Shown: positions 1,313 to 18,585 of the stretch, piece by piece
How the letters are laid out: each line of letters begins with the position of its first letter
Numbering within the stretch: the stretch's first letter is position 1
Source: a virus
Reading direction: 5' to 3' (one strand)
DNA: 20,073 nt
IMG/VR virus record: IMGVR_UViG_3300003690_000692
Coordinates: 1 to 20,073 of that record
Notes under the pieces: generated by a model
Told to the model about the DNA's origin: nothing
What the model saw: only the letters and a program-made list of their open reading frames with translations
The model's database searches: none
Translations under genes and position numbers: made by a program

Positions 1313-2173
1313 CTATCGGATGAACACCGGCTCCTCGACCACGCCGTCATGCACGGTGTTGACCGACACCGAGGAGTGTAGAATCAGATCAGCCGAGTTG
1401 ATGTCCCCATCGTCACCAATCCTGACGTTCTCTAGGATCAGCCTCCCGATCTCAAAATAGTCTGCATTGAAGGCCCCCGTCCACGCCCTTACGCCGTCCA
1501 GTATCATCGTGTCGATGATCACGTCGCCGCCCGTGGTCGTCTGCTGGAGGATGATGCGGTCAACGACCATGTTCTCTGCAATGTAGCTGGTGGCCCCTCT
1601 GCCCGAGCCGATCACCACGTCGTTGGTGGAGCTACTCAACGTGGGCGAGAACGTGTGGCCCGCCACTACTACCGAGGACGTGGCGTGGAGCGAGTAGATG
1701 TTACCGTTGGCCCAATCCATCGTCGGAAACTCACTGTTGCGGATGATCAGGGTGTCGATGGTGATCACGTCGGATGTCGATGTGCCCGTGAGTTGGAACG
1801 CATCCGTGATGCCGGACTTGCCCAACGAGACATTCGTGAAGCTGATCACGTCGATCCTGATACCCGCTGGCATGTTGATTTCCAACGTCTGGCTGCGATC
1901 TGTGGGAAACTCGGCGTCCACCACCCTAGACCCGATCATCGACGGGGCATCATAGGACGCCCCGACCATCGGCCAGGTAATCTCCTGGTCGCCTGACGAA
2001 ATGAGCAAAAACGTCGCCGCCAGGAACCCCAGCACAACCGAGGTCAGTGATGCAAAGATGAGCTTCCCGCCACCAAGGTACAGTCCGCCGGGCAGCGGAA
2101 TCCGAAGCTTTGATATGCCAGGGATTTTGAGGGTCAGCCCTGGTATCGAGAACCGAAACTTTTTCTCATTCAT
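1313..2173 (-). CDS. Membrane-anchored protein with beta-solenoid-like repeats
   Basis: A 286-residue protein of unrecognised family. Residues 1-37 are basic and rich in Pro/Gly/Ile (SIPGLTLKIPGISKLRIPLPG). Residues about 38-60 form a transmembrane helix with positive charges on the N-terminal side, predicting cytoplasmic N-terminus and an exported C-terminal domain. From about residue 95 there are hydrophobic-alternating segments such as VITIDTLIIRNSEF, MVVDRIILQ, VIIDTMILDGVRAW, YFEIGRLILENVRI and ADLILHSSV, which look like rungs of a right-handed beta-solenoid. There is no lysozyme, amidase or peptidase motif. The start ATG overlaps the end of the upstream membrane-protein gene by 8 nt. 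Possible roles include a spanin-like or surface-exposed superinfection protein, but these are guesses. Confidence 0.75.
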   Translation of the reverse strand: MNEKKFRFSIPGLTLKIPGISKLRIPLPGGLYLGGGKLIFASLTSVVLGFLAATFLLISSGDQEITWPMVGASYDAPSMIGSRVVDAEFPTDRSQTLEINMPAGIRIDVISFTNVSLGKSGITDAFQLTGTSTSDVITIDTLIIRNSEFPTMDWANGNIYSLHATSSVVVAGHTFSPTLSSSTNDVVIGSGRGATSYIAENMVVDRIILQQTTTGGDVIIDTMILDGVRAWTGAFNADYFEIGRLILENVRIGDDGDINSADLILHSSVSVNTVHDGVVEEPVFIR

Positions 2174-2480
2174 CTGACTTCATCCTGCCCTTTATTTCAT
2201 CGCTCATAAGGCCCACGATTACGCCTGCGGCACTGGTCACAGGCAGCGCAAATATGGAAAACGCCACGAGTATGATATCGAGATGCGGCGCAATCTCCGC
2301 AGGCTTGGAGGTGGTCTTCCAAACGATCAGTACTCCCAATGTGACGAAAGCCAGAAATAACGGCCCGATCAATACAATGGTGAGAAATTGCGAGCCTGTG
2401 AGGGTGGTTTTGGTTCGTATCTCCAGCTCGGCAATTCGCAGCCGCGCCTCTTCAAGCTCCTGTTGAGGATCAGTCGCCAC
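2166..2480 (-). CDS. Small membrane protein with N-terminal coiled coil
   Basis: A 104-residue protein. The N-terminus (TDPQQELEEARLRIAELEIRT) is a heptad-rich short coiled coil. Two hydrophobic segments follow: about residues 30-53 (FLTIVLIGPLFLAFVTLGVLIVW) and about 68-92 (IILVAFSIFALPVTSAAGVIVGLM), then a charged tail. I chose GTG 2480, which overlaps the preceding small membrane gene by 11 nt; an in-frame TTG at 2522 would add an Arg/Trp-rich stretch that belongs to the overlapping gene's other frame. No convincing ribosome site precedes it, so translational coupling is likely. Placement between two other small membrane proteins suggests a lysis or membrane-active function, but no family is recognised. 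Confidence 0.6.
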   Translation of the reverse strand: MATDPQQELEEARLRIAELEIRTKTTLTGSQFLTIVLIGPLFLAFVTLGVLIVWKTTSKPAEIAPHLDIILVAFSIFALPVTSAAGVIVGLMSDEIKGRMKSDE

Positions 2481-2628
2481 TGATGCGGAACCATGCCACG
2501 ACCATCGCCGCCCCCGCTGCAACCGAGGCGATTAGTCCCCCACCCGAGAGCATGACATAAATCACGAATGCCGCTGCCAGAATGAACCCCAGTATAATCA
2601 AGGCGTCCCAGAACTCATTAGTCATCAT
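2470..2628 (-). CDS. 52-aa single or double-pass membrane protein
   Basis: A short protein, MMTNEFWDALIILGFILAAAFVIYVMLSGGG then LIASVAAGAAMVVAW, ending RISGD. Residues about 8-28 form a clear transmembrane helix; after a Gly-rich turn a second hydrophobic segment spans about 32-46. The first ATG overlaps the TGA of the SpeD-like gene (ATGATGA), and GGAG lies just upstream, so translation is coupled. The stop overlaps the next gene's GTG start region. Size, topology and the run of three membrane genes resemble holin/antiholin sets, but function is inferred from context only. Confidence 0.65.
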   Translation of the reverse strand: MMTNEFWDALIILGFILAAAFVIYVMLSGGGLIASVAAGAAMVVAWFRISGD

Positions 2629-2975
2629 CGCTCCAGAATCTCCCATCGACGGATGTCCACCTTCGGGAAGAACTCTCCCAGCAGATTAAGAACAACGGTG
2701 GCCTTGATCGTCCGACACGAAAATAGGTCCACGTGCAGGCTCTTTCGGTTCGGTGCCGTGTGGATCACCAGGTGGCCCTCGGTGAGGATCGCCACGGCGG
2801 TAATCCCCGGCCCGAAGTCGGTCCCGTTCGGGGACTCCTCCAGGTGGGTGAACACGGGCCGCAGATCACACGCCTGGACCATCGCCTCTACGAACCGACG
2901 AACGTGAGCCACCTCGCTGAGTCTGTCCGAGTCGGTCAGGGCGTCCACGATCAGGAGTTCGCCGCTAGCTGTCAT
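2625..2975 (-). CDS. SpeD-like (S-adenosylmethionine decarboxylase family) protein lacking the pyruvoyl serine
   Basis: A 116-residue protein matching the bacterial/archaeal class of AdoMet decarboxylase, which self-cleaves at a Glu-Ser bond to make a catalytic pyruvoyl group. Here the motif reads PGITAVAILTEGHLVIHTAP followed by VDLFSC. Aligned with the well-known T. maritima enzyme, E66, H68, H72 (processing histidine, H68 there) and C87 (proton donor, C83 there) keep exact spacing, but position 67, the serine that becomes pyruvoyl, is Gly (codon GGC). Self-processing by the standard route should be impossible. Length fits the family (about 120-130 aa). The family assignment is by motif; the loss of activity is inference. 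ATG 2975 lacks a good ribosome site. It is coupled by ATGA to a membrane-protein gene, with no other polyamine gene nearby. Confidence 0.8.
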   Translation of the reverse strand: MTASGELLIVDALTDSDRLSEVAHVRRFVEAMVQACDLRPVFTHLEESPNGTDFGPGITAVAILTEGHLVIHTAPNRKSLHVDLFSCRTIKATVVLNLLGEFFPKVDIRRWEILER

Positions 2976-3008
2976 CTAGCGCCACACCAGTTCCGGCACC
3001 AAACCCCC

Positions 3009-3248
3009 TCATTCGCACAGTCCTGTCGCAATAGACCCCCCCATGATATTATCATTCATAGCACGCCTCAACTTCAGCCCGTATCGCCACGAAGGCTTCC
3101 CATAACCCGCCTCTCGGTTCGAGAATACCCTCCCCTCCCCACAGAACCGGCATACCGCAGCGCTCTCAGGATGGGTCGGCGGCAATACCTCCCAGAAGTG
3201 GACGCAGGACTCAGCGGTCTTCAGCATGAACTGCTCATCCTGGTTCAT
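3009..3248 (-). CDS. Small CxxC zinc-ribbon-like protein
   Basis: A 79-residue protein. The motif C-V-H-F-W near residue 15 and, after a Pro-rich loop, VCRFCGEGRVFSN resembles short zinc-ribbon proteins with a C-x-H-x-W ... C-x2-C-G arrangement that I recall as frequent in environmental phages. The single Cys/His pair plus CxxC could make one four-ligand metal site. The C-terminal half (YGKPSWRYGLKLRRAMNDN) is basic. ATG 3248 begins 2 nt after the stop of the adhesin gene; a TTG at 3254 would add two residues. No strong ribosome site is visible, so it probably depends on coupling. Function unknown. Confidence 0.65.
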   Translation of the reverse strand: MNQDEQFMLKTAESCVHFWEVLPPTHPESAAVCRFCGEGRVFSNREAGYGKPSWRYGLKLRRAMNDNIMGGSIATGLCE

Positions 3249-3250
3249 GC

Positions 3251-4291
3251 TCAAAATGGCACTGTAGGAACCGTCATGTTGAGATAACTAACGACCCGTG
3301 CCTTGCCTGTGGCTCCTGCGCCACCTGAACGATTTACCTGTCCCCCACACGCACCACCGCCACCGCCAGACGGGGCAGTGCCTGCCACCCCAGCCGCGCC
3401 ACTAGACCCGCCTGCGCCACCATTGCCGCTCTGGTTTGATACTCCTCCTGCTCCGCCAGCCTGGTCGTATACGCCAGACGATGATTCTCGGCCTCCACCT
3501 CCACCGCCTCCCCCGCCTATCGTCGAAGTTCCCCCCGCGCCACCTATATAATTGCCGCCATCGCCACCAAACCCCTCACCGCCACTGCCCCCACTGGTGC
3601 CGCCACCAGAGCCTGCTGATGCAGATAACACATATGCCTTACTCGCAGCAAATGATGAGAGGCTGCCGGTTGACCCATTGCTCCCCGATGCTCCACCCGC
3701 TCCACCCGCGCCGACGACAATGGCCTCCGTGCCAGCAAGGTCGTCGGCATCGAACATATACACTACGCGGCCACCGCCGCCACCTCCACCGCCACCGTTA
3801 TCTGGCGTGGCAGTCCCGGTCTGGTTGCCCCTACCTCCCCCGCCGCCACCCAACAACTCCACCATGACACGCTCCGCTCCTGCGGGTTTCGTCCATGTGC
3901 CGCTTGAAGTGAAATTCTGGACATCAGTGTGCGTATGATTCCCTGCCGATGCCTTGACTGCCGTGGTGCCAAGACTCCGCAGGCTAGCCGTCCCAGCCGA
4001 TGCGTCAGCCGCTGTCAGGTTGACGACGGACGAGCCGTACCATTTGAGATCATTGCCGTTGCGCTGTAACTCTCCGGCTGCGTCTGGATTTTCTTCTTGG
4101 TCGGCGAACGTGAGAGTCACCAGAGCCGCCAGGGTCAGGCCCGTCATGGACGACGCGCCGAATCCAGCCGCCCCTGTGTGGGTGTGAGTACTGAGAACGC
4201 CAAGGTTATCCCGCACGTCAGTATTCAACATTGCCGCCGTGACAATATCACTGGCGATCCCCGTCCAATCTCTCGGTGCAGTCCAAGCCAT
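3251..4291 (-). CDS. Glycine-rich tail fibre / adhesin
   Basis: A 346-residue protein. Residues 1-125 form a fibre-head module: MAWTAPRDWTG, then VTAAMLNTDVRDNLGVLSTHTHTGAAG, ending NHTHTDV. Residues about 126-150 (FTSSGTWTKPAGAERVMVELLGG) are the classic lead-in to a glycine-rich phage domain. From about 150 to 330 there are many runs of GGGG and GGAGG blocks, the pattern of polyglycine-II sandwich adhesin domains such as the T-even gp38 tip. It ends with a hydrophobic strand (ARVVSYLNM). It is expected to sit at the fibre tip and bind the host surface. AGGAG lies 6 nt before the ATG. The N-terminal module is a paralogue of the next upstream protein. The GC-rich triplet run creates long proline-rich frames on the other strand that I do not consider genes. 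Confidence 0.85.
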   Translation of the reverse strand: MAWTAPRDWTGIASDIVTAAMLNTDVRDNLGVLSTHTHTGAAGFGASSMTGLTLAALVTLTFADQEENPDAAGELQRNGNDLKWYGSSVVNLTAADASAGTASLRSLGTTAVKASAGNHTHTDVQNFTSSGTWTKPAGAERVMVELLGGGGGGRGNQTGTATPDNGGGGGGGGGRVVYMFDADDLAGTEAIVVGAGGAGGASGSNGSTGSLSSFAASKAYVLSASAGSGGGTSGGSGGEGFGGDGGNYIGGAGGTSTIGGGGGGGGGRESSSGVYDQAGGAGGVSNQSGNGGAGGSSGAAGVAGTAPSGGGGGACGGQVNRSGGAGATGKARVVSYLNMTVPTVPF

Positions 4292-4300
4292 ATTATTCTC

Positions 4301-4318
4301 CTACTGTACCTACTGTAC
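4301..4318 (+). repeat. Tandem 9-nt direct repeat before the adhesin gene
   Basis: Two exact copies of CTACTGTAC (GTACAGTAG on the coding strand) lie back to back. The copy nearer the adhesin contributes to its AGGAG ribosome site, and both copies carry a TAG, the first of which ends the small frame at 4310-4447. Confidence 0.8.
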
Positions 4319-4447
4319 CGGGAACCGGAACGGGAATTCGTAGACGAAGCCATGGGATACGATTCGGCTGATTAGCATGAGGGCCGGAGGCGGTGGTCGC
4401 TTCGCCTGCCGGATCATCGGTCGGGCCGTGACTGTCGTCATACCCAT
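4310..4447 (-). CDS. Possible 45-aa protein in the fibre intergenic gap
   Basis: A short frame, MGMTTVTARPMIRQAKRPPPP then ALMLISRIVSHGFVYEFPFRFPVQ, fills most of the 168-nt gap between the two fibre genes. GAGG lies 9 nt before the ATG. The first half is basic and proline-rich, the second is hydrophobic/aromatic with alternating pattern (strand-like). It fits the tight gene packing of the operon, but it is short and no family is recognised. Chance reading is possible. Confidence 0.4.
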   Translation of the reverse strand: MGMTTVTARPMIRQAKRPPPPALMLISRIVSHGFVYEFPFRFPVQ

Positions 4448-4459
4448 TCAGCGGCACCT

Positions 4460-4816
4460 CTATACATGGGTATGGTTACCAGCCGCCGCCTGCGTCGAGC
4501 CTGTGCCAAGCGTCCGGTGGGAGGCAGTCCCGGCTACTGCGTCCGCGTATAGCCCAACCACCGCCGAGCCGTTGTAGTATTCCAGGTTGTTGCTTTTGCG
4601 TAACAACATACCTTGAGTTGCAGGCGAACTGCCCTGCGATGCCAGCACGGGAATTGTCAGAGTCAGAGACACGCCGGAGAGCGTCGAGGAACCCATCCCA
4701 GCCGCGCCAGAGTGGGCATGTGTCGATAGCACCAGCAGATTGTCACGGATGTGAGTGTTGAGGTCGCTAGCAACCGCCATCGTACTCGTCCAGCTTTTCG
4801 GTGTAGTCCAGCCCAT
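4460..4816 (-). CDS. Short fibre-head protein, paralogue of the adhesin N-terminus
   Basis: A 118-residue protein, MGWTTPKSWTSTMAVASDLNTHIRDNLLVLSTHAHSGAAG, ending ASHRTLGTG then AAAGNHTHV and stop. It aligns over its whole length with the first ~120 residues of the glycine-rich adhesin (LNT-x-x-RDNL-x-VLSTH-x-H-x-GAAG near the start, AGTAS-x-R-LGT and NHTH at the end). It lacks the glycine-rich tip. I chose ATG 4816, 1 nt after the stop of the hub gene; the frame continues upstream but that part overlaps the hub gene. It probably forms a fibre base or an adaptor that trimerises with, or competes with, the longer paralogue. Confidence 0.75.
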   Translation of the reverse strand: MGWTTPKSWTSTMAVASDLNTHIRDNLLVLSTHAHSGAAGMGSSTLSGVSLTLTIPVLASQGSSPATQGMLLRKSNNLEYYNGSAVVGLYADAVAGTASHRTLGTGSTQAAAGNHTHV

Positions 4817-4817
4817 G

Positions 4818-6314
4818 TCAGAATGCCGGAATCGTGGACGTACCGAGGACGCTCGTCCCCAGCACCCAGAATTGAGAATAGCCACCGGTCGCAGGCGACA
4901 GCTTCCAGGTCGTGATATGGTCTGTCCCTCCGCTGGTCACGCTATGCTGCTCCGACTCGACGAAGAAATCCGCGCTGATGCCCAGGGCCGCGTCATTGGT
5001 TGCGGTGACGGTGATCCGCTCCGACAGGTCTCGGCTCAGTGCCTGCCCGATATTGCCTGGATCGGATGCCGATATTGTCATCGTCAAAATCTCGATGGGT
5101 GAGCCGTAGATCGCCATCTGGTACTCGCACCAATCCTGGGCCTCGGAGGTCGTTGGGATAAACTTCGTCTCGGCGACGTACTTCCGTTCACCGTAAATCC
5201 CCTGAGAGGTCGTGTCGATAGCCCTGACGATACATGGGTTCTTGGTGCTGACCGCCGTCCCTCTCGCCTGGAGCTTGGTCACGTAACCGCTCGACCCGGT
5301 CGCCGAATTGGTCAGCGTGATCGCCATCCGCTCCGCTGTTCTCACGGCAGAGATAGTGATGTCCTCCGCAACAGTCAGGTCAGTACCAGACCCGTTTGAG
5401 TTCGTCCAGACCTTTACGTCAGTATTTACGACCGGCACCGTCCAGGCATCGACCTCCATCGCATTATTCGCTGCATCAGGGTTCGGGAATTCTGCCTCAA
5501 ATGTTTTTGCCTCACCGGGAGCCAGAGTGGGAGATGCCGCCCCGGTCTCTGGATGCGTCCAGAGGACAGCGAGGGAGGCCAACGCAATGTAGCTGTGCGT
5601 GGCTCCTGATGCGTCGGAGAACGTCGCCTGGGACGTAGTGGATGCCGTCTCTGTTAGCCGGTGGAACCGATTCTCAAATGCTATCTGGCCGGATTTAGAC
5701 TCCTTGATGAACCCGGCCTCAGCCTCCTCGACAAGCCGGAGAGCGTCGATGGCCTTCTTCCCGCTCATCCAAAACCGGCTGATCGTGGTCTGCCCGGTGT
5801 CCAGGTCACGATCCGCTGCCTCAGTCCAGCCCACGTCGTCCAGAATATCCCCTACCGCCTGGTCTGTGCGGCGATTGGTCTGCGATGCCAACTGAGTCTC
5901 GAACTGGTTGAGATAACCGAGAGTTCCGAACGCCGTCAGTGTACAGGTCTTGACCCCTACACTAGACGGAGCAGGCAGGATGCGATCCAGCTTCCCCTGC
6001 CAACGGACGCCGTCATTGAACGCGACCGGGAACGTGTAAGGGAAGCTCCCGCTTCCGGCCTGGAGCCGAACGGTACGCCCCGGCAGGATTTTACCAGTCA
6101 GGGCCGAGGAGGTATTGGACGGTGAGTATTTACCAGCCGTATTGATTAGCCCAGCGGTCAACTTCCCGCTGATCGACCGGCCCAGTAGGGCCGAGGCGTA
6201 GTCCCGACCCCGCTCCCATGTGACCCACAAGGTGTCGCTGGTCACGTCCTCGTTCGCGTCGGTGAAATCCCCGTCGTCGTTCCAGTCGACGAGGAGGGTG
6301 TAGCTACCCGCCAT
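4818..6314 (-). CDS. Distal tail / hub-like structural protein
   Basis: A 498-residue protein. It begins MAGSYTLLVDWNDDGDFTDANEDVT, where DWNDDGDF is a D-x-N-D-x-D calcium-loop-like motif, followed by a mainly beta region containing RGRDYASALLGRSISGKLTAGLINTAGKYSP, typical of phage tail proteins placed after the tape measure. Residues about 130-220 (LNQFETQLAS..., ILDDVGWTEAADRDLDTG) resemble a baseplate-hub insertion domain. The C-terminal part (GERKYVAETKFIPTTSEAQDWCEYQ, ERITVTATND, TTWKLSP) resembles tail proteins that close the hub. There is no peptidase or lysozyme motif. It overlaps the preceding 62-aa gene by 11 nt. The role as distal tail/tail-tip protein is from order and general motif; exact equivalence to Dit or Tal is uncertain. 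Confidence 0.7.
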   Translation of the reverse strand: MAGSYTLLVDWNDDGDFTDANEDVTSDTLWVTWERGRDYASALLGRSISGKLTAGLINTAGKYSPSNTSSALTGKILPGRTVRLQAGSGSFPYTFPVAFNDGVRWQGKLDRILPAPSSVGVKTCTLTAFGTLGYLNQFETQLASQTNRRTDQAVGDILDDVGWTEAADRDLDTGQTTISRFWMSGKKAIDALRLVEEAEAGFIKESKSGQIAFENRFHRLTETASTTSQATFSDASGATHSYIALASLAVLWTHPETGAASPTLAPGEAKTFEAEFPNPDAANNAMEVDAWTVPVVNTDVKVWTNSNGSGTDLTVAEDITISAVRTAERMAITLTNSATGSSGYVTKLQARGTAVSTKNPCIVRAIDTTSQGIYGERKYVAETKFIPTTSEAQDWCEYQMAIYGSPIEILTMTISASDPGNIGQALSRDLSERITVTATNDAALGISADFFVESEQHSVTSGGTDHITTWKLSPATGGYSQFWVLGTSVLGTSTIPAF

Positions 6315-13942: not shown

Positions 13943-15235
13943 CTACGCGGCTCTTGGAATCTTGAAAGCTGCCGCCAGCCCGACCTGGCCGTCGCCCCGA
14001 CGTGAGGCGAAGAAGCCGACCTGGTCATTTTCCATGTACAGGCTGTCGTTCCGACGGATCGTGAATCCGACCCGGTCGAATATGTAGTACTGCCGGAAGT
14101 CGCCGAAGATGGCGATCTTCTCCGTGGAGGTGATGGTTCCACCCAGACCGCTTACAACGTCGGTATCCACCACTGGCCGACCCAGGATGAACGCCGCCGG
14201 AGCGGTGGTGATGTTGGCGATCCCAGTGACGCCGTTCCCGGTTACCTGGCTGTTGATCGCCGACTTCATCACCCAGGTCGAGTTCGCCCGGTGCTGCGCC
14301 TCCAGGGCGTAGAACGTGCCGATGAGGTCTGCCACGACGACACTTGTCGATCCGGCCATCGTGTAGAAGGCAACGCTGGAGTCGGACATGATCCCGGCGT
14401 ACTGCGTGGTGTTGTTGCCGCTGATGATGCCCACGTCCTCAAACCGACCAGCCGACTCTTGGAATACCGAGGTCAGCAATGCCGGAAGGTTAATAGCTGA
14501 GTCGTCCAGAAGCTCCCTGGTCACCTTGACCAGCCCGCCGGACTTCTCCAGCGCGAAGGCAACCTGCCCGACGGTCGGGGTCTGGTCGCTGTACGCCGCT
14601 TCCTCCGCTATCGCCGCCCAGGTGGCCGAACCCATCGTGGGAACGTAGCCGTCCTTGGAACTGACGCGGATCACGGTGCAGAGGGGCCGAAGCTGGGAGC
14701 CTGGGACTCCTGGGTCTCGAATTACCTGGTTGACAAACTGCTCAGGAACGAAGAACCCGCCCTCGGCGTCGGTCTCCTCCTGCATGGCCTTGACTTCGTC
14801 TGACGATGCGGTCTTCCAGAACACGTCGTCGGACGTTGACCTGAGCCACTTGACGAACGTGTCGGTTTGGAACCGGGCCTCGTCCTTCTGGGTCTGGCCC
14901 ATCTGCTCCTGCACCCACATCGGTTGCGCCATTGCGGGCATTCCCTTGACCCATGAAGAGGGCCGATATGACGCCTTGGTGTTGGCGGTCGTGTCGGTCG
15001 GGTCGTATGCCGCCACGTCCTTGTCGGCTATCGGCACGGTGTTGACGGGTCGATTAAACTCGCCCTTGAGCGCCTTGAGCTGGCTTGCCGCCTGGTCGAT
15101 CCGGTCGGCCTCCTGCATCTTGGCCTGAGCGTCCGCGATCATCCCCTCAAACTGCTCGACGTTGCCGCCGGTGAGGGCCGCTTCGGCCTGACCAAGGAGA
15201 GCGTTGGCTTCCTTGCGGGTTTCGTGCGTGTTCAA
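13943..15235 (-). CDS. HK97-fold major capsid protein
   Basis: A 430-residue major capsid protein. Residues ~4-60 (THETRKEANALLGQAEAALTGG..., MIADAQAKMQEADRIDQAASQLKALKGEF) form the coiled-coil scaffold or delta domain; the HK97 fold begins around residue 150 (EETDAEGGFFVPEQFVNQVI), with the typical VPT, VKVTRELLDDS, ALEAQHRANSTWVM and IFGDFRQYYIFDR segments. I chose TTG 15235: AGAGGAG at 15244-15250 lies 8 nt upstream, and the protease stop in its natural frame lies just before (15241-15243). The frame is open further upstream and fused to the protease frame, but I regard this as the result of a frame break at 15330-15333. It builds the icosahedral shell after removal of the scaffold domain. 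Confidence 0.9.
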   Translation of the reverse strand: MNTHETRKEANALLGQAEAALTGGNVEQFEGMIADAQAKMQEADRIDQAASQLKALKGEFNRPVNTVPIADKDVAAYDPTDTTANTKASYRPSSWVKGMPAMAQPMWVQEQMGQTQKDEARFQTDTFVKWLRSTSDDVFWKTASSDEVKAMQEETDAEGGFFVPEQFVNQVIRDPGVPGSQLRPLCTVIRVSSKDGYVPTMGSATWAAIAEEAAYSDQTPTVGQVAFALEKSGGLVKVTRELLDDSAINLPALLTSVFQESAGRFEDVGIISGNNTTQYAGIMSDSSVAFYTMAGSTSVVVADLIGTFYALEAQHRANSTWVMKSAINSQVTGNGVTGIANITTAPAAFILGRPVVDTDVVSGLGGTITSTEKIAIFGDFRQYYIFDRVGFTIRRNDSLYMENDQVGFFASRRGDGQVGLAAAFKIPRAA

Positions 15236-15250
15236 AATCCTTACTCCTCT
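15236..15250 (-). promoter_or_regulatory. Internal ribosome site for the capsid gene
   Basis: AGAGGAG at 15244-15250 is followed after 8 nt by TTG at 15233-15235 (an ATT at 15236-15238 is a second possible start). The site sits inside a long open frame, so its strength argues that the capsid is translated on its own. Confidence 0.75.
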
Positions 15251-16486
15251 TTCTGGTTGTGTATTCCATGCAGGGCGAGCTTGGCACGTTGTAGGCGCAG
15301 GGATCGCTCTGCCGTGTCCAAGACACTCTGGGGCCGTGTCGGAGGCGGCTACGTCCGGTGCGTCCTCGGTGTCTGCTTCGCCAGTTGCTGGCTCAAATAG
15401 GATACCGTCGTGATCGGTGCAGAACGACCTGGCCTCGGTCTCGCTCCAGTCATCCAACGGCAGGCGGTAAGATGCGATTTCCCAATCGCCGGTTTCCTTA
15501 TCTCGCCCGAAGAGTATCTCCACGGGTCGGTCGTCAATGGTCTCGGTGCTGGAGCGGAACGTGTCGAACTGACCAGGCTCCCGCATCCTGCAAGCGTGGA
15601 AGTTCGGGTACGGCTTCGACCCGTCGGGGAGATCGGCAGACCGTAGCTCGGAGGGCTTCCGGCCAGCCTCGCGGAGATGCCGCGCCAGGTGGTTGTAGAC
15701 CCCGCGTCGGTCGGTCTCCGGTATCGCCGTCTTGCGGGCGTTGAGGCCCGCCAGGGCAGTCGTGATGGCCCTGACGTTAGCCGCACCGCCTCGACCGTTC
15801 CGACCAATATGGTGATGGAGGTATTTATAGCTCGACTTGAGTTCGGGATCGCCCTCGGTATCTACCCAAGCATAAGCCGCTCGGAGGATCGCCGCGCCGC
15901 CCTTGATCCGGCCACGCATCAGATCGCCGTCCCAGGCGTCCTCGACCCATGCCGTCAGGTGGGACGGGATCGCGCCCTTCACCTCATCCGTTACCGGCGA
16001 GGTCTTAGCCGCAACTGTCGAGGTCGATGGTGAAGATCCTCGGATGACCGATGAGACCTCCACCCAATCGAGATTCGCGATCCGTCGAAGTACGGTCGAG
16101 ACGTCGCTGCCCTCCTGGCTCACATCGCCGTCCTTCGGGATGTTGAAGCCGATGCTCCACTCGCGGACGTAATCGCCAGCCACGTTGGAGAACGCATCGC
16201 GACCCGCTTCGGTGTCCATGTTGAACTGCATCCTGGTGAACAGCCGATACTCGTCTCCGGTAATGTATTTGGGCTGGGCAAATATTACCTTGCCGACCAG
16301 CTTCCCCCGGTCATGGCCCGATAGGACTGGGATCGGGAGGTTCTCGCGGATGCTCTTGTCGAACGCGGTCGGCTCTACTATGTCCCCGTCCGCGTCCATG
16401 ACACCCATCGTGTTCGTGTACGCCTCGACTATGCCCTCGGCCTCGTCGATGGCCTTAGCGGTGCTAGCGATGGTCTTGTGAATCAT
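15241..16486 (-). CDS. HK97-type prohead protease with two accessory domains, frame-broken near its end
   Basis: The protease processes the scaffold domain during capsid maturation. Residues 1-160 are the S78-like fold: candidate catalytic His58 in LSGHDRGKLVGKV, WSIGF at ~110, and Ser145 in EVSSV. Residues ~170-285 form a second domain (AWVEDAWDGDL, YKYLHHHIGRNGRGGAANVRA, DRRGVYNHLARHLREAG). Residues ~290-370 form a third (FHACRMREPGQFD, WEIASYRLPLDDWSETEARSFCTDHDG). The ATG overlaps the portal stop (ATGA). In the sequence as given the frame runs on into the capsid gene, but the +1 frame from about 15333 gives a natural end: SVLDTAERSLRLQRAKLALHG then HNQKEE and TAA at 15241-15243. Removing one C from CCCC at 15330-15333 restores it. 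I therefore place the end at that TAA. Confidence 0.82.
15330..15333 (-). other. Probable +1 frame break (C4 run) in the protease gene
   Basis: On the coding strand GCC CCA GAG keeps the frame that runs on into the capsid gene. With CCC instead of CCCC the frame becomes GCC CAG AGT GTC TTG and yields a coherent protease C-terminus and stop. A sequencing or assembly error, a real mutation, or a programmed shift could each explain it. Confidence 0.65.
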
Positions 16487-18585
16487 ATAGCCTGCTCCTC
16501 CGGCTTGAATCCCCTGGGCATCGGCATCCAGTTCAGCGTCCCGTTCGGGTGGTCGTCTACGAGGGCGGCTGCTTCCGTTGTGTAAATCAGCCCGTTCCGT
16601 TCGGCGCAAGTCCGACCATCGCCAGGGTCAATGTAGGTATCATCAGGATCGTCGCCGTCATCAGCCTGGACGTAGAAAAAACCCTGCTCCTTGTAGAACC
16701 CGACCGTGGTCTGGTTCTGCGTCCTCATGATCTCGGTGCGGGCGATCAGCCGAGAGCGGTTCTCAGTCTCAGTCAAGAGTGAGCGGATGCCTGGGAACTT
16801 GTCGTCCGGTACGCCCCGCGCCAACTGCGTGACCGTGTAGCCCCGTTCTATCCCGATCTGTACGGCTTTGCCGATGGCCTTGTTGGTTGTCCGGTGGATC
16901 ATTGCGGCCCGCGTCGGAGCTTGTACTAGCACCTCTTGAACGACGGGCAGCTTCTCAGACCAGTCCAGGGTTCCGGCGACGCCGATGTCGTTGATGATTT
17001 TGAACGTCTCCTTGCTAGCCTTCCGCGCCGCTGCCTCTAGGATTCGCGACAGGTTGCCCGTCTCGATGGGCGGCAACATATCCTCGATCCCGAATGGGTA
17101 GTCCTTGACCACCTCGGTCTGACGTTCCATGTGACGCCCCAGGATGCCGTCTACGCGGTTCCTGATGCCTCGGAAGTGGGTTAACACCTTTGCAGCCAGT
17201 TCGTCTGTCTCCTCCTCACGTTCCTCGATCAACTGCCGCCGCATTATCCGGCCACGCGAAGCAACGCGAGGAGCCTTCAGCTCAGGCAACGCCAGCGTCT
17301 GCTCGACCGGAGCCGCGTCCACGGCAACGGGTGCGGCAGCACCCTCCGCAATCTCAAACACCGACGACGGGACGCGACGCACCGCGCCGTCCGATACTGC
17401 ATCAAACCCTAGCTCCTCCCGCGCCTCGTTGAGAGTGACAATCCCACCAGCAAACAGGGCTGTTAGCCGAGTGGTAGTCGCTGCCTGGTCATCGAGAACG
17501 CCCCGCATTGCAGCCCAGTCGACCGAGAGGGTCTCGTTCCCGCTGTACTCGTCGAACAGGTTGCGGTTGAAGTACCTCAAAATCCTAGCGACCATCGGCT
17601 CCAGGGTCTCTGAATGGAAGGCAAGACGAGCCTCCCGATAGTTGGAGAACGTGGAACGCTGAAGGCCGACGTTGGCCCCGATCAGGATGGGCGGGACACC
17701 GAACACCGCGCAGATGCGGGACTCGGTCAGGTTGTGAAGACCGGTCAGCTCCATGTCCTTCGGGCTATTGCTCATCGGCTGGTACTCGGCATCGTCGTCG
17801 AGGATGGCGATCCGATGGAAGTTGTTGACCCCGCCAAACTGGCTGCGCCATCGCGCCCGAATCGTTGACGCCTCCTCCTGAGAGGTCAGCCGGCGCTTGA
17901 TCTTCAGCAATCCAGACGGGACGCCAGCGTTTTGGAAATAAATCTTGGCGAAGTCCGTCATATTCAGATCGAGATTGACCGTGCGGGACAGCACCTTGAG
18001 CGGACTGAGGCCGTAGAGATCGCCGCTCGGATGCGGCAGGGCGAGGTGGCACATATCGCGGACGTCGACGCTGTACTCCTTACCGCCCACGGTGTAGACA
18101 TAGCCCTGCGCCCCGTAGTCCCCAGGCACGATGGTCACGCGGTCTGGACGCAGTAGGTAGATGGCTGAGACCTGGTCGTTCCGCGCCCGCTCCTTGATCG
18201 CGTAGGCGTTGCCTGCCACCATGAGGAACGTGACCAATCTCTCGATGAACGAATACCAGTCGCTGTACGGGTTGGGCGTGGTGGTCAGGTCGTAGAGGAG
18301 GCCCCGGTCGACCTCAACGGTGCCGCCATCGGTTGAAGGGGCCGAGACATAGTACCGGGGTGTAGCTGCGGAGGTTGCTAGCTCACGGATGCAGGCGTGA
18401 ACGATCTCGTTCTTGCCGTAACCCTCGGAGGCGAAGTTCTCGTAGTTGGCATCAGGATACGAGACCACGCCCACGTCCATATTGAGTGGAACGGTGGTGG
18501 ACAATTCCGGTTGCTGCTTGCGGAACAGCGTATCCCAAAACGCCAAAAGCGACCTCCCCGGCGTTCGGGCTTGCGCCTCGGACAC
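16483..18585 (-). CDS. Portal protein fused to MuF-like head morphogenesis domain
   Basis: A 700-residue protein. Residues ~55-400 are an HK97-type portal: NEIVHACIRELATSAA, the GNAYAIKER and YLLRPDRVTI segments, IYFQNAGVPSGLL, CAVFGVPPILIGANVGLQRSTFSNYREARLAFHSETLEPM and GGIVTLNEAREELGF. After an Ala/Pro-rich linker (~412-440) come charged helices, then residues ~560-690 form a MuF-like domain: SRLIARTEIMRTQNQTTVGFY, an acidic loop DDGDDPDDT, DGRTCAERNG and a closing HPNGTLNWMP. The portal forms the 12-mer DNA gate; MuF domains are packaged in the head. No toxin domain follows. GTG 18585 is the best start, though with a weak ribosome site. The stop overlaps the protease ATG. Confidence 0.92.
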   Translation of the reverse strand: MSEAQARTPGRSLLAFWDTLFRKQQPELSTTVPLNMDVGVVSYPDANYENFASEGYGKNEIVHACIRELATSAATPRYYVSAPSTDGGTVEVDRGLLYDLTTTPNPYSDWYSFIERLVTFLMVAGNAYAIKERARNDQVSAIYLLRPDRVTIVPGDYGAQGYVYTVGGKEYSVDVRDMCHLALPHPSGDLYGLSPLKVLSRTVNLDLNMTDFAKIYFQNAGVPSGLLKIKRRLTSQEEASTIRARWRSQFGGVNNFHRIAILDDDAEYQPMSNSPKDMELTGLHNLTESRICAVFGVPPILIGANVGLQRSTFSNYREARLAFHSETLEPMVARILRYFNRNLFDEYSGNETLSVDWAAMRGVLDDQAATTTRLTALFAGGIVTLNEAREELGFDAVSDGAVRRVPSSVFEIAEGAAAPVAVDAAPVEQTLALPELKAPRVASRGRIMRRQLIEEREEETDELAAKVLTHFRGIRNRVDGILGRHMERQTEVVKDYPFGIEDMLPPIETGNLSRILEAAARKASKETFKIINDIGVAGTLDWSEKLPVVQEVLVQAPTRAAMIHRTTNKAIGKAVQIGIERGYTVTQLARGVPDDKFPGIRSLLTETENRSRLIARTEIMRTQNQTTVGFYKEQGFFYVQADDGDDPDDTYIDPGDGRTCAERNGLIYTTEAAALVDDHPNGTLNWMPMPRGFKPEEQAI

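What the first reader, a model, noticed from the sequence alone, without database searches (positions are those of the whole stretch)
2625..2975. SpeD-like protein with the pyruvoyl-forming serine replaced by glycine
The frame keeps the AdoMet decarboxylase core motif and exact spacing (E66, H68, H72, C87), but residue 67 is Gly (codon GGC) where every self-processing enzyme needs Ser. A Ser-to-Gly change needs one base (AGC to GGC). The rest of the domain is intact and in a tight, coupled gene context, suggesting retention for another job such as binding AdoMet or polyamines, inhibiting the host SpeD by forming mixed oligomers, or acting as a structural element. Neighbouring genes are small membrane proteins, not polyamine genes.
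Basis: partly seen in the sequence, partly recalled or inferred. Interest (0 to 1): 0.75.

Follow-up and report, generated by a model that had tools for sequence, protein, structure and literature searches.

The report
Phage-borne SpeD pseudoenzyme with Ser-to-Gly
A marine phage carries a gene for a protein folded like the polyamine enzyme AdoMet decarboxylase but lacking the serine that makes its cofactor, so it is almost certainly a dead enzyme kept, or just carried, for a non-catalytic role; the same serine loss has happened separately in a well-conserved family of Selenomonas-type bacteria.

Summary
It encodes 116 aa and matches Pfam AdoMet_dc. Residue 67 (T. maritima Ser63) is Gly, codon GGC at 2777-2775. 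E66, H68, H72 and C87 are kept.

"The rest of the domain is intact" is only half right. AlphaFold predicts the whole fold (pLDDT 95; Z about 16 to T. maritima SpeD). But the positions equivalent to Thr66, Trp70 and Glu72 are Val, Ala and Asn, unlike 159 distinct Ser-type cores. The pocket, not just one codon, has changed, so a lone sequencing error is a poor explanation.

Among viruses the Gly is so far unique: all related viral proteins read here have Ser, and IMG/VR scans for Gly variants found none. The gene is cargo: about 670 bp inserted into a small holin-like gene that is whole in sister phages, none of which carries a SpeD.

A genome scan found Gly-SpeD as a conserved family in Negativicutes (43 loci; dN/dS 0.05-0.12), mostly beside a class 1a SpeD. 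The phage and bacterial Gly arose separately.

Most likely reading: a non-catalytic SpeD-fold partner protein, perhaps acting on host SpeD (inferred). Dead AdoMetDC paralogs are a known kind; a stand-alone phage one is a new variant.

The parts
2625..2975 (-). SpeD-like (AdoMet_dc) ORF, 116 aa, pyruvoyl serine replaced by glycine
   Evidence: AlphaFold model pLDDT 95; Z about 16 to T. maritima SpeD
2775..2777 (-). codon GGC = Gly67 (T. maritima Ser63 position)
   Evidence: alignment
2542..3209 (-). 668-bp segment present in the window and absent from the sister phage L261; splits a holin-like gene and contains the SpeD-like ORF
3009..3254 (-). ORF of 81 aa whose start (MNQDEQFMLKTAE...) is the N-terminal part of the ~80-aa gene that is whole in L261/L262
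   Evidence: no Pfam or PHROG match
2470..2646 (-). small membrane-protein ORF (probable start ATG at 2628, overlapping the SpeD-like stop); its end GGGLIASVAAGAAMVVAWFRISGD is the C-terminal part of the split gene
2166..2522 (-). conserved small membrane protein of this phage group
   Evidence: 91.5% identical in L121
1313..2173 (-). 286-aa conserved protein used to fetch 31 sister loci
3251..4291 (-). glycine-rich tail-fibre-like protein upstream of the insertion
   Evidence: Pfam Gly_rich_2 and PHROG tail matches

Best explanation
It is a class 1b SpeD homologue that can no longer make its pyruvoyl cofactor and is therefore a pseudoenzyme. The phage acquired it as accessory cargo, within a ~670-bp insertion into a small holin-like gene. 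Most likely it acts through the kept fold, as a non-catalytic partner protein; the natural candidate partner is the host's own class 1b SpeD. Bacterial SpeD works as a face-to-face dimer of half-sandwiches, so a dead protomer could pair with a live one and change polyamine synthesis during infection. Shown here: family membership, Ser to Gly, changed pocket, intact predicted fold, insertion site, and existence of conserved Gly relatives in bacteria. Inferred: lack of processing and activity. Speculative: the partner and the direction of the effect.
For: AdoMet_dc match. Gly67 with Tm Thr66, Trp70 and Glu72 also replaced, against 159 Ser-type cores. H72 and C87 kept. Fold predicted at pLDDT 95, pTM 0.87; top structural matches are T. 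maritima and Aquifex SpeD, including the S63A non-processing mutant 1tmi. Insertion into a gene that is whole in L261 and L262, with no SpeD in 38 plus 31 sister loci. An independent Gly-SpeD family in Negativicutes with dN/dS 0.05-0.12, alongside a class 1a SpeD in 13 of 14 genomes tested and spermidine synthase in 12 of 14. Precedents for useful dead AdoMetDC folds: trypanosome prozyme, which activates its partner about 1000-fold (PMC5201418), and the degenerate SpeD domain of the V. vadensis fusion (PMC10407285).
Against: Only one viral sequence is known, so selection on the phage gene itself cannot be measured. No polyamine gene is adjacent. No host is known, so it is unknown whether the host has a class 1b SpeD at all. 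The ATG has no obvious Shine-Dalgarno sequence close upstream. Sister phages do without it, so it could be a neutral passenger. A partner role has no direct evidence.
Confidence: 0.42

Rival explanations
1. A decaying or neutral passenger: a speD gene picked up with an accessory segment lost its serine and pocket and now does nothing.
For: Singleton among viruses; absent from all sister loci; very long branch in the tree; inserted into a gene that other phages keep whole.
Against: Full-length open frame, coding-like codon composition, core H/C/D positions kept, confident fold. At about 30% identity to any relative, unconstrained drift would be expected to leave stops.
Confidence: 0.27
2. A repurposed ligand-binding or other non-pyruvoyl protein: the old pocket now binds a different small molecule, acting as a sensor, sink or new enzyme.
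For: The pocket is changed in a cluster (63, 66, 70, 72) while the scaffold is kept; SpeD homologues are known to change substrate (PMC10407285, PMC9992855).
Against: The substrate-switched SpeD groups reported keep the Ser63, His68 and Cys83 positions (PMC10407285); no ligand is indicated.
Confidence: 0.15
3. Part of the lysis cassette: the SpeD-like protein is translated together with the rebuilt small membrane protein and serves that function structurally.
For: Stop/start overlap with the downstream ORF and position inside the split holin-like gene.
Against: The sister phage L121 has a different insert at the same gene, suggesting a cargo slot rather than a lysis part; no precedent.
Confidence: 0.07
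4. Sequencing or assembly error: the true codon is Ser and the protein is an ordinary decarboxylase.
For: A single contig; one base separates AGC from GGC; every other viral homologue read here has Ser.
Against: Val and Ala at Tm 66 and 70 were seen in none of 159 Ser-type cores, and Glu stands at 72 in 154 of them; P0001 scores below every canonical core even on columns not fixed by the search pattern.
Confidence: 0.06

Closest known systems
Class 1b S-adenosylmethionine decarboxylase (SpeD; T. maritima 1tlu/1tmi, Aquifex 2iii)
   Same: Pfam family, fold (Z 15-16), length, conserved E/H/H/D/C positions
   Different: Lacks the self-processing Ser and the Trp/Glu pocket residues; 20-24% identity to these structures; scores 41.9 bits against the enzyme model TIGR03330 (cut-off 75.65)
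Phage SpeD homologues turned L-ornithine or L-arginine decarboxylases (PMC9992855, PMC10407285)
   Same: Stand-alone phage-borne SpeD with a changed substrate pocket
   Different: Those are pyruvoyl enzymes with Ser63, His68 and Cys83; this one cannot form pyruvoyl
Trypanosomatid AdoMetDC prozyme (PMC5201418)
   Same: AdoMetDC-fold protein that lacks the pyruvoyl and other active-site residues
   Different: Two-lobe eukaryotic protein, a paralogue in the same genome, proven heterodimer; none of this is shown here
Degenerate C-terminal SpeD domain of the Victivallis vadensis fusion (PMC10407285)
   Same: Bacterial SpeD domain that lost critical active-site residues
   Different: Fused to an active SpeD; the phage protein stands alone
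N-terminal domain of human spermine synthase (3c6k)
   Same: AdoMetDC-like fold without decarboxylase function (own knowledge); Z 10.3 to the model
   Different: Domain of a larger enzyme, very remote in sequence
Gly-SpeD family of Negativicutes (found here)
   Same: Ser replaced by Gly, His and Cys kept, Glu72 lost in most
   Different: Independent origin in the tree, ~150 aa with a conserved C-terminal tail (LKRGDFG..DMKPK..), cellular not viral

Membership tests
AdoMet_dc superfamily (Pfam PF02675) | Profile match above the gathering score | tested here: met
   50 bits against 25
AdoMet_dc superfamily (Pfam PF02675) | Alpha/beta half-sandwich fold of class 1b SpeD | tested here: met
   Predicted model, pLDDT 95; Z 16.4, rmsd 2.0 over 110 residues to 1vr7
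Active AdoMetDC (SpeD, class 1b) | Ser63, the pyruvoyl precursor | tested here: not met
   Gly67, codon GGC
Active AdoMetDC (SpeD, class 1b) | His68 and Cys83 of processing and catalysis | tested here: met
   H72 and C87 aligned
Active AdoMetDC (SpeD, class 1b) | Aromatic at Tm 70 and Glu at Tm 72 | tested here: not met
   Ala and Asn. Not decisive alone: Sinorhizobium phage phiN3 SpeD also lacks the usual W-P-E, yet restores spermidine (PMC9992855)
Active AdoMetDC (SpeD, class 1b) | NCBIfam TIGR03330 equivalog cut-off | tested here: not met
   41.9 bits against 75.65
Active AdoMetDC (SpeD, class 1b) | Self-cleavage and decarboxylation | not testable with these tools
   needs purified protein
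SpeDC/SpeDA ornithine or arginine decarboxylases | Conserved Ser63, His68 and Cys83 | tested here: not met
   Ser absent; requirement from PMC10407285
SpeDC ornithine decarboxylases | Diagnostic Gln, Thr, Phe and Tyr of the central region | not tested
   exact columns are in a figure that could not be read
Prozyme-like regulatory pseudoenzyme | Loss of pyruvoyl with fold kept | tested here: met
Prozyme-like regulatory pseudoenzyme | Binds an active AdoMetDC and changes its activity | not testable with these tools
   host unknown; needs binding and activity assays

The most novel reading that the evidence does not exclude
Bacteria and phages have their own 'prozymes': stand-alone SpeD-fold proteins with the pyruvoyl serine changed to glycine, arisen at least twice (Negativicutes and this phage; possibly also a Myxococcota/deltaproteobacterial protein, L196), that control polyamine synthesis by pairing with an active enzyme, in the phage case to reset the host's polyamine pool.
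Probability: 0.22. Interest if true: 0.75.

Novelty: new variant of a known kind. Interest (0 to 1): 0.5.

Why it matters
Phages are known to carry active SpeD and substrate-switched SpeD. A phage SpeD that cannot make its cofactor points to a third use of this fold in viruses: as a binding or regulatory protein. The independent, strongly conserved Gly-SpeD family in Negativicutes, mostly in genomes that also have a class 1a SpeD and a spermidine synthase, makes this testable in cultivable bacteria (Pectinatus, Propionispira, Selenomonas). I found no paper in the library searched that describes it. It also warns annotators: both proteins pass the AdoMet_dc cut-off and can be mislabelled as active decarboxylases.

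Tried and rejected
Close viral relatives by direct protein query: none. Viral scans for E-G-H variants, strict and relaxed, and for residues other than Ser/Gly: none. These patterns also fix other motif residues, so variants with several losses would be missed, and the tools warn that near-identical records of the window may be left out. Cultured phages and plasmids: best matches about 27-35% identity over most of the protein, all with Ser where read. Sister phages: no SpeD in any. Myxococcota sample: relatives at about 21-46% identity, all 20 read have Ser. Tree: groups the window with a Gemmatirosa plasmid SpeD at high support, but both branches are long and I do not trust the placement; by alignment the 'PNGGISGVAxLxESH' SpeDs of Alphaproteobacteria and Myxococcota are the nearest read in full (29-32%). 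Donor and host remain unknown. E72/W70 loss as proof of no AdoMet binding: rejected as too strong because of phage phiN3. TubC_N docking domain in the L121 insert: below cut-off.

Full report
OBSERVATION. The ORF is real but on the minus strand, 2975..2625 (116 aa). The plus strand of that interval has an internal stop. It matches Pfam AdoMet_dc with 50 bits (cut-off 25), two PHROG families annotated AdoMet decarboxylase, and TIGR03330 only below its cut-off (41.9 against 75.65). The motif reads TEGHLVIHTAPNRKSLHVDLFSC. T. maritima has [23 protein letters not shown], so Gly67 stands where Ser63 forms the pyruvoyl; codon GGC at 2777-2775. His68 and Cys83 are kept. Codon-position GC is that of a coding frame and matches the phage's portal gene.

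MORE THAN ONE CHANGE. I collected 159 distinct core sequences of Ser-type SpeDs from viruses, plasmids and bacteria. Ser at 63 is fixed by the search pattern in many of them, so that column alone says little there. Other columns are free: Tm 66 is Ser/Thr/Ala, 70 is always aromatic, 72 is Glu in 154. The window has Val, Ala and Asn. On the free columns it scores below every canonical core left out in turn. So the change is a cluster in the pocket, which fits loss of AdoMet decarboxylation better than a base-calling error. Caution: phage phiN3 SpeD has LQDSHSSAHFCDVTGDFYFDCFSC and still restores spermidine (PMC9992855), so these positions alone do not exclude AdoMet binding.

FOLD. AlphaFold on an alignment of window, viral and bacterial homologues gives pLDDT 95.1 and pTM 0.87. 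The best solved matches are T. maritima SpeD, including its S63A non-processing mutant, and Aquifex SpeD (Foldseek; Z 15-16). Human spermine synthase, whose N-terminal domain has this fold, follows at Z 10.3. The prediction used homologues, so it shows compatibility with the fold, not proof.

CARGO. The window is an IMG/VR record of 20,073 bp. Related loci were fetched by a tail gene (38 loci) and by the 286-aa gene 1313-2173 (31 loci). None encodes a SpeD by tblastn or by a SpeD profile; many of these loci end before the slot, so the count of informative ones is smaller. In sister contigs L261 and L262 one ~80-aa gene, coiled-coil plus membrane segment by eye, stands here: NQDEQFMLKTAEALGRIEERGEDTLRHVIALNVTVSDQGQRITVLESSWRTGKVLGGGLIASIAAGAAMVVAWFRISGD in L261. 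In the window its start is at 3250-3210 and its end at 2544-2470, with 668 bp between. The SpeD-like ORF lies in that segment, and its TGA overlaps an ATG of the downstream membrane ORF. L121, 84-93% identical in neighbouring proteins, has a different insert at the same gene. The site looks like a cargo slot. Holin identity is inferred from length and context only.

OTHER VIRUSES. A scan allowing any residue at position 63 stopped at 119 loci, all Ser. Scans for Gly, strict and relaxed, and for non-Ser/non-Gly residues found none. An alignment-based scan whose pattern allowed Ser or Gly kept its best 80 loci, all Ser.

BACTERIA. The relaxed Gly pattern in 84,980 species genomes gave 44 loci. 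One is a Myxococcota/deltaproteobacterial protein (L196). The other 43 form one family in Selenomonadaceae, Sporomusaceae and relatives. In a sample of 200 genomes of that class, 43 match the any-residue pattern; by my count 17 have Gly and 26 Ser, and nothing else occurs. Ser orthologues there mostly use AGY codons, one base from GGY. Twelve close pairs give dN/dS 0.05-0.12, strong purifying selection. Of 14 such genomes tested, 13 have a second AdoMet_dc protein; the four class 1a examples printed keep the KSH[IV]TVHTYPE motif, and 12 of 14 have spermidine synthase. In two Pectinatus the Gly gene sits just downstream of an rpoD-like gene (identified by eye). The tree needs three changes for Gly, so window, L196 and Negativicutes are separate by that count.

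MECHANISM. Gly cannot undergo serinolysis (established chemistry of pyruvoyl enzymes), so no pyruvoyl and no decarboxylation. What remains is a scaffold. Bacterial SpeD dimerises through its sheet faces (PMC5201418), and prozyme shows that a dead AdoMetDC can be a strong regulator. I therefore favour a partner role, with host SpeD as first candidate, but only the loss of catalysis is well supported. A neutral passenger is the main rival.

VERDICT. Observation confirmed, interpretation partly supported, new variant of a known kind. The Negativicutes family is the stronger lead for experiments.

Noticed in passing
L159-L202 (except L196), e.g. L200:194-673, L172:3582-4037: A conserved family of Gly-for-Ser SpeD paralogues in Negativicutes with a shared C-terminal tail (KRGDFG..DMKPK..APLRR), under strong purifying selection and mostly in genomes that also have a class 1a SpeD.
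   Followed up: partly
L196:5-532: A Myxococcota/deltaproteobacterial SpeD-like protein with AEGHLSIHAFVDKGYSFVDLFSC: Ser also replaced by Gly, apparently a third independent case, the only AdoMet_dc match in its genome.
   Followed up: partly
L121:9843-10360: Sister phage with a different insert at the same holin-like gene, including an ORF weakly like the TubC docking domain (below cut-off).
   Followed up: partly
13943-16609: One ORF holds both a prohead protease (Peptidase_S78) and the major capsid protein (Phage_capsid).
   Followed up: no
3251-4885: Two adjacent ORFs (4460-4885 and 3251-4291) share related N-terminal regions, as they do in the sister loci; looks like a tandem tail-gene duplication.
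   Followed up: no
L234:2749-6153: Xenorhabdus plasmid pXT141: an unannotated SpeD homologue (with Ser) next to a HutW-type radical SAM gene, a hypothetical protein and ornithine decarboxylase speF.
   Followed up: no
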